Positions 28,781 to 35,986 of a stretch of DNA of 35,986 nucleotides are shown in pieces (within the stretch, counting starts at the first letter, position 1; each line of letters starts with the position of its first letter). The position numbers and the translations under genes are program-made. The notes below the pieces were generated by a model. It was given only the letters and a program-made list of their open reading frames with translations. It ran no database searches and was not told where the DNA came from. The DNA comes from Treponema sp. (GTDB taxonomy: Bacteria; Spirochaetota; Spirochaetia; Treponematales; Breznakiellaceae): contig JAITQK010000055.1 in assembly GCA_031288975.1 (NCBI GenBank), positions 1 to 35,986 on the forward strand. Direction: 5' to 3'.

Positions 28781-28806
28781 ATATTTTTATCAATAAGGTC
28801 GTGAGG

Positions 28807-30048
28807 ATGAGTCATATCAAGTTGCCTGATCAGAATACCCTCCGAAATCACTATGAACAGTACGCTTCGGTGAGGGCTTTTATCGTTAAGGATATAGAGA
28901 CCCGCATCGAGAAGACCGTGGCGGTCCTTGCCTCTCGTCCAACCGTTAAAGGCAGGGTGAAGAATTTTGAGAGCTATTATAAAAAATACATCAAACTCCT
29001 TAATCATCATGTCGCTGGATCCAACCCCCCGCTTATTACCGATTTAATCGGCATCCGGATCGTATGTCCTTTTTTTGATGATCTAACCACGGTTGAAGGG
29101 CTGATTAAAAAAGCTTTTGAGGTTATTGAGGTTGAACGCAAAGGTTCAAGTCATTCCTTTAAAGAATTTGGGTATGAATCGACCCATTTGCTGATCGGTA
29201 TCCCCGAGGACATGACCGAAAAGTGGGGACCCTGCGGCTGTGAGGTCGCTGAAATTCAAATTCGTACCATACTGCAGGATGCCTGGGCAGAGGTGGAACA
29301 TGAACTGGTGTATAAGGCTGAATTTACCCCCTTTGATGAACCTATGAAGCGTAAACTCGCGGCAATTAATGCCAGCCTTTCCCTGGCGGACACTATTTTT
29401 CAGGAGATCCGGACCTATCAGCGGCAGCTTAATGCAGAACTGGGGAAGCGGCGGGATTCCTTTTTCAAGAAGATAGAAGAATCCACTGATGCCCTCCTGT
29501 TTACCGATGATACACCAGAAAACGCCCCCCTGGAACTCCCGGCGGTTCCGTTGCTTCCACCGGTTTCAGCCCGTAAATCCATTGATGACCAACTGCTTAA
29601 TGCCCTGTATGCTCATAACCGGGGTCAATTCAATGAGGCCATCGCTTTTTATACCCATATTCTGGCAATGGATCCGGATAATACCATCAAATCCCTTATC
29701 TATAAACACCGGGGTATGGCTCATTTTGCCCGATCCCACTATGAAGCGGCCATTGATGATTTTACCCAATCCCTTGAACTGGACCCCAAATCCTATAAGG
29801 CGTTCTATTATCGGGGGGTGGTCCAGGCGGTACTGCAATGCTTCACCCAAGCCATCGATGATTTTACCAGTTCCCTGGACATCAACCCCTATCAAGCCTT
29901 CTGCCGGTATCGCCGGGGATTGATCTATTACCATATTGATGATTATCCCCAGGCCCTGGCGGACTGCGAAGCGGCGCTGGCATTGGACCCCAATGCTGAA
30001 CCGGCCCGGAAATTCAAGGTCCTGCTCCTCGATAAGCTGAAAATGTAG
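28807..30048 (+). CDS. RelA/SpoT-domain alarmone synthetase with C-terminal TPRs
   Basis: The likely start is the ATG at 28807, eight bases after TAAGG; a GTG at 28801 adds two residues. The protein has 413 residues. The synthetase core has KGRVKNFESYYKKYIKL, ITDLIGIRIVCPFFDD (catalytic Asp in DLIGIR), FGYESTHLLIGI and EIQIRTILQDAWAEVEHEL, the nucleotide-binding signature. No HD hydrolase or TGS/ACT domain is present, so it resembles small alarmone synthetases. Residues about 265-410 form at least three TPRs (NRGQFNEAIAFYTHILAMDP; HYEAAIDDFTQSLELDPKSY; DDYPQALADCEAALALDPNA). The TPRs could sense a protein partner. It makes (p)ppGpp or a relative; the exact product is not visible. Confidence 0.85.
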   Translation: MSHIKLPDQNTLRNHYEQYASVRAFIVKDIETRIEKTVAVLASRPTVKGRVKNFESYYKKYIKLLNHHVAGSNPPLITDLIGIRIVCPFFDDLTTVEGLIKKAFEVIEVERKGSSHSFKEFGYESTHLLIGIPEDMTEKWGPCGCEVAEIQIRTILQDAWAEVEHELVYKAEFTPFDEPMKRKLAAINASLSLADTIFQEIRTYQRQLNAELGKRRDSFFKKIEESTDALLFTDDTPENAPLELPAVPLLPPVSARKSIDDQLLNALYAHNRGQFNEAIAFYTHILAMDPDNTIKSLIYKHRGMAHFARSHYEAAIDDFTQSLELDPKSYKAFYYRGVVQAVLQCFTQAIDDFTSSLDINPYQAFCRYRRGLIYYHIDDYPQALADCEAALALDPNAEPARKFKVLLLDKLKM

Positions 30049-30110
30049 CGCGCTGTTTTTGATGAGGAGTCTTCGTGGTAAATTTTTCGTGTTTTGCCAA
30101 GTATTTGCCA

Positions 30111-30139
30111 TTGACAGAAAATAACAAATTGGGTATAAT
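30111..30139 (+). promoter_or_regulatory. Sigma-70-type promoter of the chemotaxis receptor gene
   Basis: Perfect TTGACA (30111-30116) and TATAAT (30134-30139) with a 17-base spacer. The leader to the ATG at 30227 is about 80 bases. Confidence 0.8.
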
Positions 30140-30226
30140 GGAGACACTTTATTAAAGCAATAATCAACGATGTACTTCGGTCAAATAAAAATAAAATAGT
30201 AGAGGACAATTTTAAGGAGTTATAGT

Positions 30227-32047
30227 ATGAAGTTTTTTAACAATCTGTCTATTGGCATGAAATTCTTGTGCAGTTCTCTGCTTATTGTCGGGGTTCTGAC
30301 AATTATTTGTTGGCAGAGTATAAACACGATAGAAAACTGCCATCATGCCTGCGGTATGCTTATAGGCGGAGCCGTTACGACAAAGTCGCTGGCGCAGAGC
30401 GCGCAAACCTCGTTCTACGCGCTTACCGAAACCGCGAATCAGTCCCTGCTCTACGTTCATGCCGGTGATTCCGCGAAAGGCGCCGAACTCACGCGAAAAT
30501 TTAACGCAGACGCCCAGGCTCTTACCGCTTCACTTGATACGGTACTGCGGGCGCTTAACGCAGACCCCCTGGTGGATAAATCTATCATCAGTCCTCTCAC
30601 GGCAAAGGCGGATAGCGCAAAGTCTGCGTTGAATAATGAGTATGTGCCGCTCATTGGTGCACTTGCCGGCGCTCAAGAGGGCACCGCGGATTTCACGCGG
30701 TCGGTGGCTCTTTCTGAAAAAATCGCACTGGATATTGACGCGGTATTTCAGGGCATTGCCACAGCCGGCAATGATGTTTATAATGGCTATGTTAATTTTC
30801 TGCTCGGAACCATTGTGAAGCTGAAGATATTTGTCATTATCGCTATCCTGTTTTCGATTATCCTCGTGCTTTTTCTGTCATTTATCATTAAAAAGCCTTT
30901 CCAAAACATGATGGATACTTTGGGAGCAATCGCCGCGAAATGGGATATGACAAAACAGTTTGACAGCAATAGTAAGGATGAAATCGGTAAACTGGCTACA
31001 TTTTTTAATCTTACCTTTGAAAAAATGAAAGAGCTTCTTTTTGTCATAAAGCAGATGTCTATATCCCTGATTGATACCGGTGCCACCCTTACAGCAAACG
31101 CACACCAAACCGCCTCGTCAATCAACGAAATCACCGCTTCTATACAAAGCATGAAAGAACAGGTGATTACCCAGGCATCGGAGGTAAATCAAACCGGCGG
31201 TGCTATGGAACGGATTATGTCCCAGGTTGATAAGCTCAATGAGCACATCGTGGTACAGTCGGAAAGCGTGAATCAATCATCAGCGGCGATAGAAGAAATG
31301 TTAGCTAATATTCATGCGGTGGCAGAAACCTTATCCAAGAACGCGGCGAATGTCGTTACCCTATCGGAAGCCTCTGAAGCGGGCAAGCATGATCTGCAAA
31401 CCGTTTCTGCAGATATTCAGGAAATCGCCCATGAATCCGAGGGGCTTTTGGAGATCAACGCAGTAATACAGAACATCGCAAGTCAGACTAATCTATTGAG
31501 CATGAACGCCGCCATTGAAGCTGCTCACGCGGGAGAAGTGGGCAAGGGCTTTGCGGTAGTAGCCGACGAAATCAGAAAGCTGGCGGAAAATTCCAGCGAA
31601 CAATCAAAAACCATCAGCAGCATACTGCAGAAGATCAAGGTTTCCATAGATACGATCACCAAATCCACTGGCGTAATGACTAAGGGTTTCGAGACAATTG
31701 AGGCAGGAGTGAAAACGGTATCCAATCAGGAAGCCTCCATCCGTACCGCAATGGAAGAGCAGGAAAATGGAAGCCGCAGTATTCTTGAAGAGATAACCAA
31801 GCTCAAGAATATCACCGGACTGGTAAAAACTTCTTCCGCCGGGATCGCCGCCGAAGGACAAGCGGTAAAACATCAGAGCACGAATCTTGAGCAAATAACC
31901 GATGAAATTAAAAACGGTATGAACGAAATGTCGGTGGGCGCCGAATTGATCAGTATTGCGGTAAATCAGGTTAACGATATAAGCGGGGCCAACAAGCGAA
32001 ATATCGACACCCTGAGCGCGGAAATCTCAAAATTCAAGGTGGAATAG
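30227..32047 (+). CDS. Methyl-accepting chemotaxis protein
   Basis: The receptor has 606 residues, with ribosome binding site AAGGAG. It has a short cytoplasmic start, TM1 (about 12-32), and a helical periplasmic sensor of 4HB type (about 35-193). TM2 is about 195-222 ([20 protein letters not shown]), followed by a HAMP linker and a long signalling coiled coil. The hairpin tip is near 427-448 ([20 protein letters not shown], then [14 protein letters not shown]), which docks CheA/CheW. No che genes adjoin it. The ligand is unknown. It ends 38 bases before the restriction-modification gene, without a visible terminator. Confidence 0.93.
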
Positions 32048-32085
32048 TAAAAGGAACATATCGGCTGCTAGTCGGAAAAAAAGCA

Positions 32086-35000
32086 ATGAACCAAAACCAT
32101 GAAATAGATACGTACCTTAGTGAGATTGACAAAATATACCGCTCAGGCAAAGGCACGGAACACAGTTACCGTCCCGCGCTCAAAACCCTTTTTGAAGCGA
32201 TTACTAGCGGCTTGACCATAACCAACGAGCCAAAGCGTATAGCCTGCGGCGCGCCCGATTACATCATAACCCGCAACGACATACCCATAGGATACATTGA
32301 GGCAAAGGACATTTCCGTAGGGATATATAATAAAGCAAACAAAGAACAGTTTGACCGATATAAACAATCCCTTAACAACCTCATTATTACCGATTACCTT
32401 TCATTTCAATTATTTGTCGATGGCGCCGAAGTTGTTACCATAACTATAGCTAAAGAGAGTGGCGGCGGTATCGCTCCTGACAAAAAACAATGTGATGCAT
32501 TTATGGAATTGGTTCAGCAATTTACAGACTTCAGGGGCAAGAGCATCTACCAGTCCGAACAATTGGCAAAGATGATGGCGGCGAAGGCAAAACTCCTTGC
32601 CGGAATAATTGAGAAAGCCCTGCACGATACCGAAGCGGAAAATGACACCTTGTCAGGACAGTTGGAAGGTTTCCGCAAAATCCTGATACACGACCTTTCT
32701 ATCCCCGCATTTGCCGATATGTATGCACAGACCCTTGTCTACGGGATGTTCGCGGCGCGTTTGAATGATCATACCAACGATAAATTTTCACGATTAAAAG
32801 CGGCTGCTCTCATCCCCCCGTCAAATCCTTTTCTGAGAAGGTTTTTTTATTATATTGCCGGACCGGATCTTGACGACCGGATTTGCTGGATTGTGGACGC
32901 GCTTGCCGATATTTTTAACTGTGTTGCCGTAGAAGTGTTGTTTGAAGAATTTGGAAGGGCAAATCAGGACCCCTATTTACATTTTTACGAGACATTCCTT
33001 GCCGAATACAATCATAAATTGCGCGAAGAACGGGGAGTCTACTACACGCCGCTTCCCATTGTCAAATTTATAGTCCAGGCGGTTGATACCATTTTACAAA
33101 ATGATTTTCACATAGCCAAAGGGCTGGCCGACAGCTCAAAAGACGAGGGGTTTCATAAAGTTTACATTCTCGAACCCGCGACTGGAACAGGTACTTTTCT
33201 TGTTGAAGTAATCGAAAATATTTATAAACGGTTTGTGAATCAAAAAGGAATGTGGCGCGATTATTGCAAAGAACATCTGCTGCCGCGATTGAACGGCTTT
33301 GAAATCCTCATGGCGCCCTACGCGATGGCGCACTTTAAACTTGAGATGAAACTTAAAGAGACGGGGATAAATACAGCGGAATTAAAAGACCGCTTCCGCG
33401 TATATCTTACGAACAGTCTTGAAACCGCCGCAGACAACAATCCTGTTTTGCTTATGGAAAAATGGCTTTCCGATGAGGCCGATGAAGCAAACAGGGTTAA
33501 GCGCGATGCCCCCGTCATGGTTGTTCTGGGGAATCCACCCTACAGTGGGGAGAGCGCTAATAAAAATTGTTTGGTGGATTTATTGGAAGACTACAAAAAA
33601 GAACCGGGCGGAATAGAAAGGCTGCAAGAGAAAAATTCCAAGTGGCTTAACGACGATTATGTCAAATTCATCCGTTACGGACAATCGCTTGTTGTAAAGA
33701 ACGGTAGCGGAATACTGGCTTATGTCAACAATCACAGTTTTCTGGACAATCCCACCTTCCGGGGTATGCGCTGGAATTTGCTTCAAACCTTTGACAAAAT
33801 ATATATTCTTGATATTCATGGAAACGTAAAAAAGAAGGAAAGCGCGCCAGATGGCAGCAAAGATGAAAATATTTTTAATATACAACAGGGTGTAAGTATA
33901 AATATCTTTGTAAAAACAAAGAAGAAAAAACAAGATGAGTATGCAAAGCTATACCATTACGATTTATACGGAAGCCGAAAAGCTAAATATACATACCTGC
34001 TTGAAAATACGCTTACCACTGTAAAATGGGTTGAACTTTCACCAAACACCCCGCAGTACTTTTTTGTGGAAAAAGATTTTACCAATCAAGCGGAATATGA
34101 AGAAGGATTTAGCGTGCAGAAATTGTTTCCGGTAAATTCGGTTGGGATTGTAACCGCCCGTGATGATTTTACTATTCATAATTCAGTGCAAAGTGTAAAA
34201 AATATTATTAAGGAATTCTTGTCACTTGATGACGAAACAGTCCGTCAACGCTTTAATTTAGGCAAGGATGTGCGAGATTGGAGTGTAGCAGGCGCCAGAA
34301 AAGATTTAGTTCCGGCTGATTTTTCGCATATCGTAAAAATCAATTACCGTCCTTTCGATATACGATATACCTATTATACAGGTCATTCAAAAGGTTTCCA
34401 TTGTATGCCGCGAGGTGAAGTCATGCGACATTTTCTTGCTGGCAATAATAATGGTTTAGTGATAGGAAGGCAGGGGCAAGTTGTTGGCTCTATGCCATGG
34501 AATTTAGCTTTTGTAACGTCCCAAGCTATTGATTTTAATCTTTATTACCGGGGAGGTGGATATATTTTCCCCCTCTACCTCTATCCCGAATCCGACAATT
34601 TGGACAGCACCGCCCAGCGTCGCCCAAACCTGAATAAAAATATAGTTGATGAAATAGCCCAACAAACAGGCTTGCGTTTCACCGAAGAAAAAGAAGATGG
34701 TGATGCTACATTTTCTCCTTTAGATTTACTCGACTATATCTACGCTGTTTTATACAGCAATAATTACCGTGCAAAATATAAAGAATTCCTCAAAATAGAC
34801 TTCCCCCGTGTACCGTATCCAGAGAACAAAGAACCATTTCAGAAATTATCCAAATATGGCGCCGCTTTGCGGAACCTGCATCTGCTGGAAAATGTTGAGC
34901 CTCTTATGGACATGGCACTATATCCGATAGAAGGAAATAATTGTATAGACAAAATAGTATATAAAAACGGCAATGTATATATCAACAAAACCCAATATTT

Positions 35001-35184
35001 TGAAAATGTTCCTCTTGAAGTATGGGAATATTATATCGGCGGCTATCAGCCTGCACAAAAATGGCTCAAGGATCGTAAGGAGCGGGAATTAGATTATGAC
35101 GATATATCACATTATCAAAAGATAATCACCGCATTATCATTGACGATTGAGGTGCAGGCGCATATTGATACAATACTCAAATAA
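32086..35184 (+). CDS. One-polypeptide restriction-modification enzyme (type ISP-like / type IIG-like)
   Basis: This 1032-residue enzyme has an N-terminal PD-(D/E)xK nuclease (Asp58 in GAPDYI, Glu72-Ala-Lys74 in GYIEAKD, then QFDRYK). A helical coupler follows, then an N6-adenine methyltransferase with SAM motif LEPATGTGTFLVEV (about 362) and catalytic NPPY (483-486). The C-terminal half is a target-recognition region ending in DLLDYIYAVLYSNNYRAKYKEFL...FPRVPYP, seen in type ISP C-terminal domains. No helicase motifs are visible, unlike the longer LlaGI-type enzymes, so it may cut like type IIG. Translation signals are weak. The gene is AT-richer than its neighbours, which suggests transfer. 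A truncated copy of its nuclease domain follows at 35303-35677. Confidence 0.85.
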   Translation: MNQNHEIDTYLSEIDKIYRSGKGTEHSYRPALKTLFEAITSGLTITNEPKRIACGAPDYIITRNDIPIGYIEAKDISVGIYNKANKEQFDRYKQSLNNLIITDYLSFQLFVDGAEVVTITIAKESGGGIAPDKKQCDAFMELVQQFTDFRGKSIYQSEQLAKMMAAKAKLLAGIIEKALHDTEAENDTLSGQLEGFRKILIHDLSIPAFADMYAQTLVYGMFAARLNDHTNDKFSRLKAAALIPPSNPFLRRFFYYIAGPDLDDRICWIVDALADIFNCVAVEVLFEEFGRANQDPYLHFYETFLAEYNHKLREERGVYYTPLPIVKFIVQAVDTILQNDFHIAKGLADSSKDEGFHKVYILEPATGTGTFLVEVIENIYKRFVNQKGMWRDYCKEHLLPRLNGFEILMAPYAMAHFKLEMKLKETGINTAELKDRFRVYLTNSLETAADNNPVLLMEKWLSDEADEANRVKRDAPVMVVLGNPPYSGESANKNCLVDLLEDYKKEPGGIERLQEKNSKWLNDDYVKFIRYGQSLVVKNGSGILAYVNNHSFLDNPTFRGMRWNLLQTFDKIYILDIHGNVKKKESAPDGSKDENIFNIQQGVSINIFVKTKKKKQDEYAKLYHYDLYGSRKAKYTYLLENTLTTVKWVELSPNTPQYFFVEKDFTNQAEYEEGFSVQKLFPVNSVGIVTARDDFTIHNSVQSVKNIIKEFLSLDDETVRQRFNLGKDVRDWSVAGARKDLVPADFSHIVKINYRPFDIRYTYYTGHSKGFHCMPRGEVMRHFLAGNNNGLVIGRQGQVVGSMPWNLAFVTSQAIDFNLYYRGGGYIFPLYLYPESDNLDSTAQRRPNLNKNIVDEIAQQTGLRFTEEKEDGDATFSPLDLLDYIYAVLYSNNYRAKYKEFLKIDFPRVPYPENKEPFQKLSKYGAALRNLHLLENVEPLMDMALYPIEGNNCIDKIVYKNGNVYINKTQYFENVPLEVWEYYIGGYQPAQKWLKDRKERELDYDDISHYQKIITALSLTIEVQAHIDTILK
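32197..32332 (+). repeat. Direct repeat, copy 1 (inside the nuclease domain)
   Basis: These 136 bases match 35471-35606 at 132 positions. They encode the active-site part of the nuclease, from AITSGLTITNEPK to VGIYN. Just upstream this copy lacks twelve bases (four codons) present in the second copy. Confidence 0.9.
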
Positions 35185-35470
35185 AAAAGCATTAAGGATG
35201 CGCAGGATCAATCCCTGAATTATTTATGACCACACCTATAAACGACTCAAGAGTGGCAAATTCTCGAATTTATCATATTTCGGCGCTATATATGGTGTTT
35301 TAATGATACAAAAATACCCTATATATAGTGTGATCTTGCGAATTTGCGACTCACAAGTAAACGAGATACAGCGGTATATTGCCGAGCTTGACCGGATATA
35401 CTGGCAGGGTAACGACATGGAACACAGCTATCGCCCTAGTCTCAAAACCCTTTTTGAAACGCTTGTAAGC

Positions 35471-35606
35471 GCGATTACTAGCGGCTTAACCATAACCAAC
35501 GAGCCAAAGCGTATAGCCTGCGGCGCGCCCGATTACATCATAACCCGTAACGACATACCCATAGGTTACATTGAGGCAAAGGACATTCCCGTAGGGATAT
35601 ATAATA
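35471..35606 (+). repeat. Direct repeat, copy 2
   Basis: Partner of 32197-32332, with four mismatches in 136 bases. Its 3' boundary coincides with the start of the hairpin at 35606. Confidence 0.9.
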
Positions 35607-35634
35607 GCGTTCTATGGGGGTTTGATAGAACGCT
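35606..35634. other. Perfect hairpin at the duplication breakpoint
   Basis: AGCGTTCTAT (35606-35615) and ATAGAACGCT (35625-35634) form a perfect 10-base stem around a nine-base loop, exactly where similarity to the intact enzyme gene ends. It could be a recombination scar, the end of an insertion, or a terminator for the convergent gene. No clear T run follows in either direction. Confidence 0.6.
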
Positions 35635-35686
35635 ACCGGTGTCACGGCGCTTGTCTTCACAGTCCGCTAAAAAATAAGGGGGCTTC

Positions 35687-35986
35687 CTAAAACCGGATTG
35701 TGAGGGAAAGGCCGGTGTCCCACACGGCATATCCAACTCCGGCATCTTGTGTGGTAGACTTAAAACTACTTTGATACATCGCACCACGGACTCCGTTGAT
35801 AGACCGGTAGGCCCCATGGAGCGATATACTCAGCCATTGGCAGGGTGAAAAGGTAAAGTCCAGCCTCGGTTCAAGAAAGAGGCCACCAGACATATAATCG
35901 TTGTATCGTGTCTTGGTGGTAAGATGATCATCCTGGTCGTTGCCAAAAACCACCGGGCCTATGCGGAACGATGCTTCCAGGGAAAG
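35687..35986 (-). CDS. Outer-membrane beta-barrel protein, C-terminal part (possible omptin)
   Basis: Only the last 99 codons lie in the window; the frame stays open to the window edge. Alternating aromatic and polar strands (SLEASFRIGPVVFG, MSGGLFLEPRLDFTF, WLSISLHGAYRSING, AGVGYAVWDTGLSLTIRF) and the C-terminal Phe are the signature of outer-membrane barrels inserted by BamA. The spacing and DTGLSLTIRF end recall omptin-family proteases of treponemes. The catalytic residues would lie mostly outside the window, so the family name is tentative. Confidence 0.6.
   Translation of the reverse strand, partial: LSLEASFRIGPVVFGNDQDDHLTTKTRYNDYMSGGLFLEPRLDFTFSPCQWLSISLHGAYRSINGVRGAMYQSSFKSTTQDAGVGYAVWDTGLSLTIRF

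What the first reader, a model, noticed from the sequence alone, without database searches (positions are those of the whole stretch)
32086..35677. Restriction enzyme followed by a near-identical spare nuclease segment
The nuclease core is repeated 3.3 kb downstream at 132 of 136 bases, with a 12-base difference just outside it. Such high identity next to an intact gene suggests recent duplication, a remnant of a replaced paralogue, or a donor for gene conversion that could switch nuclease activity while sparing the methylase.
Basis: partly seen in the sequence, partly recalled or inferred. Interest (0 to 1): 0.58.

Follow-up and report, generated by a model that had tools for sequence, protein, structure and literature searches.

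The report
Restriction gene beside broken mosaic copy
An intact one-protein restriction-modification gene is followed by the front end of a second, related gene that a small mobile element has interrupted and that is cut short; the near-identical stretch shows that the two genes recombined in the past, but nothing suggests that the remnant does anything today.

Summary
The repeat is real: 132 of 136 bases, 3,274 bp apart, with a 12-nt indel just upstream. Gene A (32086-35184) is a complete 1032-aa single-chain Type IIG enzyme, closest in structure to DrdV. Downstream lies the 5' end of a second gene, B. B's start codon is at 35226. A 112-bp MITE-like element (35246-35357), flanked by the duplication TAAACGA, splits codon 7, and B's coding homology stops at 35606. 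B's first 36 codons are synonymously saturated against A (dS 2.2), whereas the next 45 codons have dS 0.10. B is therefore a mosaic: its own 5' end joined to a piece almost identical to A, the trace of recombination between paralogues or alleles. B lacks half of the nuclease fold and all of the methylase and specificity domains. Recombination between the repeats would delete the methylase and specificity regions too, leaving a 105-aa stub, so it cannot switch the nuclease while sparing the methylase. Verdict: an ordinary decayed restriction gene. The mosaicism among related alleles is mildly interesting.

The parts
32086..35184 (+). Gene A: intact single-chain Type IIG restriction-modification enzyme, 1032 aa: N-terminal PD-(D/E)XK nuclease about 1-150, N6-adenine methylase about 299-577, specificity (Type_ISP_C) domain 679-1019
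   Evidence: ORF; Pfam; PADLOC PDLC03610, 1096 bits; PDB 7lo5, 4xqk, 5ffj; N-terminal fold matches the nuclease part of DrdV
32183..32332 (+). Repeat copy 1 (inside the nuclease domain of A)
35226..35245 (+). Start of gene B (ATG plus five further codons and two bases) left of the inserted element
   Evidence: Reading across the empty site gives MTTPINEIQRYIAELDRIY..., like relatives
35239..35245 (.). Left target-site duplication TAAACGA
35246..35357 (.). 112-bp MITE-like element with imperfect terminal inverted repeats (CTTGTGAGTCGCAAATTC type); 6 near-identical copies (this one included) and 2 diverged 124-bp copies in the genome
35358..35364 (.). Right target-site duplication TAAACGA
35365..35606 (+). 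Remaining coding homology of gene B: own 5' part to about 35452-35470, then the A-like core
35457..35606 (+). Repeat copy 2; its 12 extra nt (TLVS) lie just before the 136-nt core
35605..35635 (.). Hairpin at the right breakpoint (stem TAGCGTTCTAT / ATAGAACGCTA); a related sequence lies beside the same downstream gene in G002
   Evidence: fold; pattern match; synteny
35687..35986 (-). Downstream flank: 3' part of a gene that runs off the contig, syntenic with G002:C29

Best explanation
The locus holds one working-looking Type IIG enzyme gene (A) and, 41 nt downstream of its stop codon, the 5' remnant of a second gene (B) of the same family. Shown from the sequence: B had its own start codon; a 112-bp non-autonomous element inserted in codon 7 and left a 7-bp target duplication; B's coding homology stops at 35606, where flanking intergenic sequence begins; and B is a mosaic whose 5' end is old and diverged while its last 45 codons are almost A's own sequence. 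Inferred: a recombination event between tandem or incoming alleles (gene conversion, unequal crossing-over, or single-crossover integration followed by deletion) put A-type core sequence next to B's 5' end. The rest of B was then lost, and the remnant is now non-functional and decaying.
For: Leaving out the element and one TAAACGA copy, reading starts at 35226 with MTTPINEIQRYIAELDRIYWQGND, matching the N-termini of relatives. All 6 near-identical copies of the element have exact 7-8 bp duplications, against 0 of 2 diverged copies. B vs A: dS 2.22 in the first 36 codons vs 0.10 in the 45-codon core; Fisher test on nt identity (67/99 vs 131/135) p = 7e-10. Among 33 sequences compared with A, B's core is 131/135 and the next best is 109/135. 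The nuclease fold of A continues with a helix at 83-95 (Q88, Y92) and strands to residue 131, all missing from B, which stops at the equivalent of residue 82. No other part of B was found in the genome. The left flank is syntenic with G001 only up to the MCP stop codon (32046), with no restriction gene after it there, and the right flank with G002 only from about 35607. Mosaicism is general here: A vs L156 has dS of 1.3 or more in residues 1-300, 0.27-0.52 in 301-680 and 2.0 in 681-798; A vs G002 goes from dS 2.0 at 749-800 to 0.14 at 951-1032.
Against: The shared tract is short (45 codons, 31 synonymous sites), so its exact ends are uncertain. An 18-nt identical run left of the 12-nt indel means the indel may lie inside the tract. 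No genome with an intact B was found, so B's original 3' part and the order of events are unknown. B is open in frame apart from the element, so decay is shown by the insertion and truncation, not by stop codons. No reads or isolates were available.
Confidence: 0.83

Rival explanations
1. A simple recent partial tandem duplication of gene A, followed by decay of the copy.
For: 132 of 136 nt identical and close by.
Against: The 5' side is only 67/99 nt identical with saturated synonymous sites. The copy has its own different start (MTTPIN, not MNQNH), so it did not begin as a copy of A's 5' end. A duplication of the core alone into an existing B remains possible and is a version of the best explanation.
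Confidence: 0.07
2. A silent donor cassette: gene conversion from the fragment switches A's nuclease off or on while the methylase stays active.
For: Direct repeats with 59 nt of uninterrupted identity could recombine.
Against: Three of the four core differences are synonymous and the fourth gives the family-typical proline; D58, E72 and K74 are identical in both copies. The 12-nt insertion lies in a loop that varies in length among relatives. A crossover between the repeats deletes 3,274 bp including methylase and TRD. The arrangement was found in 1 of 28 genomes with the domain (195 searched).
Confidence: 0.03
3. Assembly artefact: a chimeric contig joined through the repeat.
For: The genome is a fragmented draft (248 contigs) and the fragment lies 0.4 kb from the contig end.
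Against: The longest exact run shared by the copies is 59 nt, shorter than the k of 119 suggested by the names of most related records (this record's own k is not shown). The element has a clean target duplication. Each flank is syntenic with a congener.
Confidence: 0.05
4. The fragment encodes a short protein with a role of its own, for example a partner or inhibitor of A.
For: An open frame of 124 aa remains, with a start inside the element.
Against: It lacks the second half of the nuclease fold. Its original start is cut off by the element. No counterpart was shown outside full genes: the short N-terminal hits G003, G103:C96, G069, G078, G156 and G157 lie at contig ends; G140 and G162 were not resolved.
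Confidence: 0.02

Closest known systems
DrdV (PDB 7lo5/7lvv), single-chain Type IIG restriction-modification enzyme
   Same: About the same length (1029 vs 1032 aa); methylase/TRD match by sequence (E 7.5e-39); the N-terminal nuclease model matches DrdV best (Foldseek E 2.9e-06)
   Different: Low sequence identity in the nuclease (about 20%); target sequence of A unknown. That DrdV is classed as Type IIG is recalled
Type ISP enzymes LlaBIII and LlaGI
   Same: Methylase and C-terminal specificity domain (Pfam Type_ISP_C; PDB 4xqk and 5ffj)
   Different: No helicase domain was detected in A, and A is about 550 aa shorter than LlaBIII's chain
Domain movement between restriction specificity genes (DOMO) in Helicobacter pylori (PMC3077401, passages read)
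   Same: Recombination at short repeats shuffles parts of restriction genes and leaves truncated genes
   Different: There it moves specificity domains in S genes; here the exchanged tract lies in the nuclease part and the product is a truncated relic
MITEs of bacteria (general knowledge)
   Same: Short, no coding capacity evident, inverted ends, 7-8 bp target duplications, several copies
   Different: No matching full transposon was found in this incomplete genome, so the parent family is unknown

Membership tests
Type IIG restriction-modification enzyme (gene A) | Nuclease and methylase in one chain | tested here: met
   HSDR_N-like D..ExK motif with DrdV-like fold and N6_Mtase in one 1032-aa ORF
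Type IIG restriction-modification enzyme (gene A) | Own target recognition domain | tested here: met
   Type_ISP_C 679-1019, E 3.5e-85
Type IIG restriction-modification enzyme (gene A) | Cleaves at a fixed distance from its site, no ATP needed | not testable with these tools
   needs purified protein
[quoted passage not shown]
   No helicase family in Pfam at E 0.001; only about 180 residues between nuclease core and methylase
Restriction gene relic (gene B) | Homologous to a full gene, interrupted and truncated | tested here: met
   112-bp element in codon 7 with TSD; homology ends at the equivalent of residue 82-84 of 1032
MITE | Terminal inverted repeats, target duplication, several near-identical copies | tested here: met
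   6 of 8 copies 112 bp with exact 7-8 bp TSD; the five others of these are 92-97% identical to the window copy
MITE | Mobilised by a related full transposon | tested here: inconclusive
   No longer element with these ends recognised among 22 pattern matches; genome 80% complete
Gene-conversion donor cassette (pilS-like) | Donor carries variant sequence that changes the expressed protein | tested here: not met
   Core differs by one amino acid, towards the family norm

The most novel reading that the evidence does not exclude
In these termite-gut treponemes, Type IIG genes keep tandem 5' remnants as recombination landing sites, so that incoming alleles are captured by crossing over in the conserved nuclease core or methylase and the resident specificity is replaced; the fragment would be the scar of the latest capture.
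Probability: 0.08. Interest if true: 0.5.

Novelty: new member of a known kind. Interest (0 to 1): 0.17.

Why it matters
It shows how a suspicious repeat beside a restriction gene resolves into three ordinary events: a second gene, a recombination tract and a MITE insertion. The jumps of synonymous divergence within gene A against two related alleles are a small, testable case of module exchange in single-chain restriction enzymes of uncultured treponemes.

Tried and rejected
Rejected: a nuclease switch that spares the methylase (product; same catalytic residues); stand-alone nuclease fragments as a recurrent gene (the short hits checked lie at contig ends; G140 and G162, also with short frames, were not resolved); the 12-nt indel as a deletion in A (most relatives have A's length); the right-hand hairpin as a genome-wide repeat (1 match each in G000 and G002, 0 in G001); an Rfam RNA (0 matches); intrinsic terminators or promoters (15 promoter-like vs 10.2 expected, 1 terminator-like vs 5.2 expected: no clear signal); an exact core copy in viral contigs (0). 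An early idea that the 12 nt mark a microhomology join was dropped: an 18-nt identical run lies left of the indel, and the loop varies in length naturally (G107, G078). Paper searches listed nothing whose title or abstract start describes this arrangement (one returned none); searches were for background. A fold search gave DrdV only at E <= 0.001.

Full report
What was claimed. A nuclease core repeated 3.3 kb downstream at 132 of 136 bases, with a 12-base difference beside it. Both are exact. In the genome held (G000, 2.80 Mb in 248 contigs, 79.9% complete; the window is the whole contig C185) only these two copies were found, by DNA and by protein.

Gene A. 32086-35184 encodes 1032 aa. Pfam finds an HSDR_N-like nuclease motif (56-119, below the curated cut-off), N6_Mtase (299-521) and the Type ISP specificity domain (679-1019). 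PADLOC calls it a Type IIG enzyme with 1096 bits. Solved relatives by sequence are 7lo5 (titled DrdV) and the Type ISP enzymes LlaBIII and LlaGI. A model of residues 1-183 (mean pLDDT 85.1) has DrdV chains as its only Foldseek hits at E <= 0.001 (8 of 8). No helicase family was found, so it is not a Type ISP enzyme in the strict sense. The 12 aligned N-termini keep D58, E72, K74, Q88 and Y92 as invariant columns; reading these as the catalytic set of the PD-(D/E)XK fold is recalled knowledge.

The element is 112 bp (35246-35357). One search found 5 further copies at 92-97% identity and one at 68%; one search added a diverged one on C77. One search examined 8 copies: all 6 near-identical ones are 112 bp with exact target duplications of 7 or 8 bp (the window's is TAAACGA), and the 2 diverged 124-bp ones have none. 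The element folds far better than its shuffles (z -3.8). Reading across the empty site gives MTTPINEIQRYIAELDRIYWQGNDMEHSYRPSLKTLFETLVSAITSG... from an ATG at 35226, 41 nt after A's stop codon. Relatives begin similarly, e.g. TTPAAEIAAYLKEIDKLYRAG in G003. So the 'spare segment' is the front of a second, once ordinary gene with its own start, broken by a MITE-like insertion in codon 7.

Mosaic. Against A, B's first 36 codons have pS 0.71 (dS 2.2), and the following 45 codons have 3 of 31 synonymous and 1 of 104 non-synonymous sites changed (dS 0.10). Identity is 67/99 nt before and 131/135 within, p = 7e-10. One search compared A with 33 sequences including B: core identity is 131/135 for B and at most 109/135 for the rest; one of them, L128, has no core and is uninformative. 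One shared history does not give both values, so B's 5' end and its core have different origins relative to A. Which gene was donor is not known. The 12-nt insertion lies where G107 and G078 are five residues longer than A, in a loop; most relatives have A's length.

Where B ends. After 35606 the sequence is flank: a hairpin whose core is shared with G002 just before the same downstream gene (1 match each in G000 and G002, none in G001); that gene region is 90.5% identical from 35683 on. On the left, synteny with G001 (94.4% over 7,874 nt) stops at 32046, the end of the chemotaxis gene, and the sequence that follows in G001 is different. The A-plus-B stretch is therefore a variable segment in this genus (3 genomes). 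A's relatives appear in 14 of 58 genomes searched, own included, and the N-terminal part in 28 of 195 family genomes, own included. Only G000 and G103 had two matches, and G103's lie on different contigs. These are drafts, so absence is weak evidence.

Function. B stops at the equivalent of A's residue 82, just before the helix 83-95 and the strands up to 131, and has no methylase or specificity part. A crossover between the repeats removes 3,274 bp and leaves a 105-aa stub: it would delete the methylase and specificity regions rather than toggle the nuclease. Copying B's core into A would change one residue, Ser to the family-typical Pro. The known phase-variable Type IIG gene (Campylobacter cj0031, PMC4889913, passages read) switches by a polyG tract; I saw no long homopolymer tract when reading 29500-35986, but did not scan for one.

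Beyond the finding. Gene A itself looks mosaic. Against L156 (Treponema Po218_bin51) dS is 1.3 or more for residues 1-300, 0.27-0.52 for 301-680 and 2.0 for 681-798. Against G002's gene (Po218_bin31, only residues 749-1032 present because its contig ends) dS falls from 2.0 to 0.14 towards the C-terminus. Five more distant relatives are saturated in all three parts (pS 0.75-0.86), so the jumps are not explained by a methylase part that is always slow. This fits the exchange of parts between alleles described for H. pylori specificity genes (PMC3077401, passages read).

Verdict. Real observation, ordinary explanation: a decayed second restriction gene with a recombination tract and a MITE insertion. 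Interest is low.

Noticed in passing
window 35246-35357; G000 C15, C129, C163, C186, C204 (and diverged C212, C77): A 112-bp palindromic MITE-like family with 7-8 bp AT-rich target duplications; no parent transposon found in this incomplete genome; a single 31-nt match in G002.
   Followed up: partly
window 32086-35184 vs L156 and L163: Abrupt changes of synonymous divergence within the Type IIG gene: methylase shared with one allele, C-terminal part with another; suggests module exchange among termite-gut treponemes (the termite-gut origin is inferred from recalled record series).
   Followed up: partly
window 28801-30048: RelA/SpoT-type alarmone synthetase domain fused to TPR repeats; G001 holds two copies (C195, C132).
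   Followed up: no
L156 1060-5001 and L049 about 1286-1360: In L156 the restriction gene sits directly behind what look like oxaloacetate decarboxylase genes (naming recalled); in G002 a short reading frame resembling its small subunit precedes the hairpin beside the window's downstream gene.
   Followed up: no
window 35634-35667 and G000:C153:9107-9140 (L005): A 34-nt stretch, 88% identical, shared between the right flank and a region near a gene that looks like an Rpn-type transposase (recalled resemblance).
   Followed up: no
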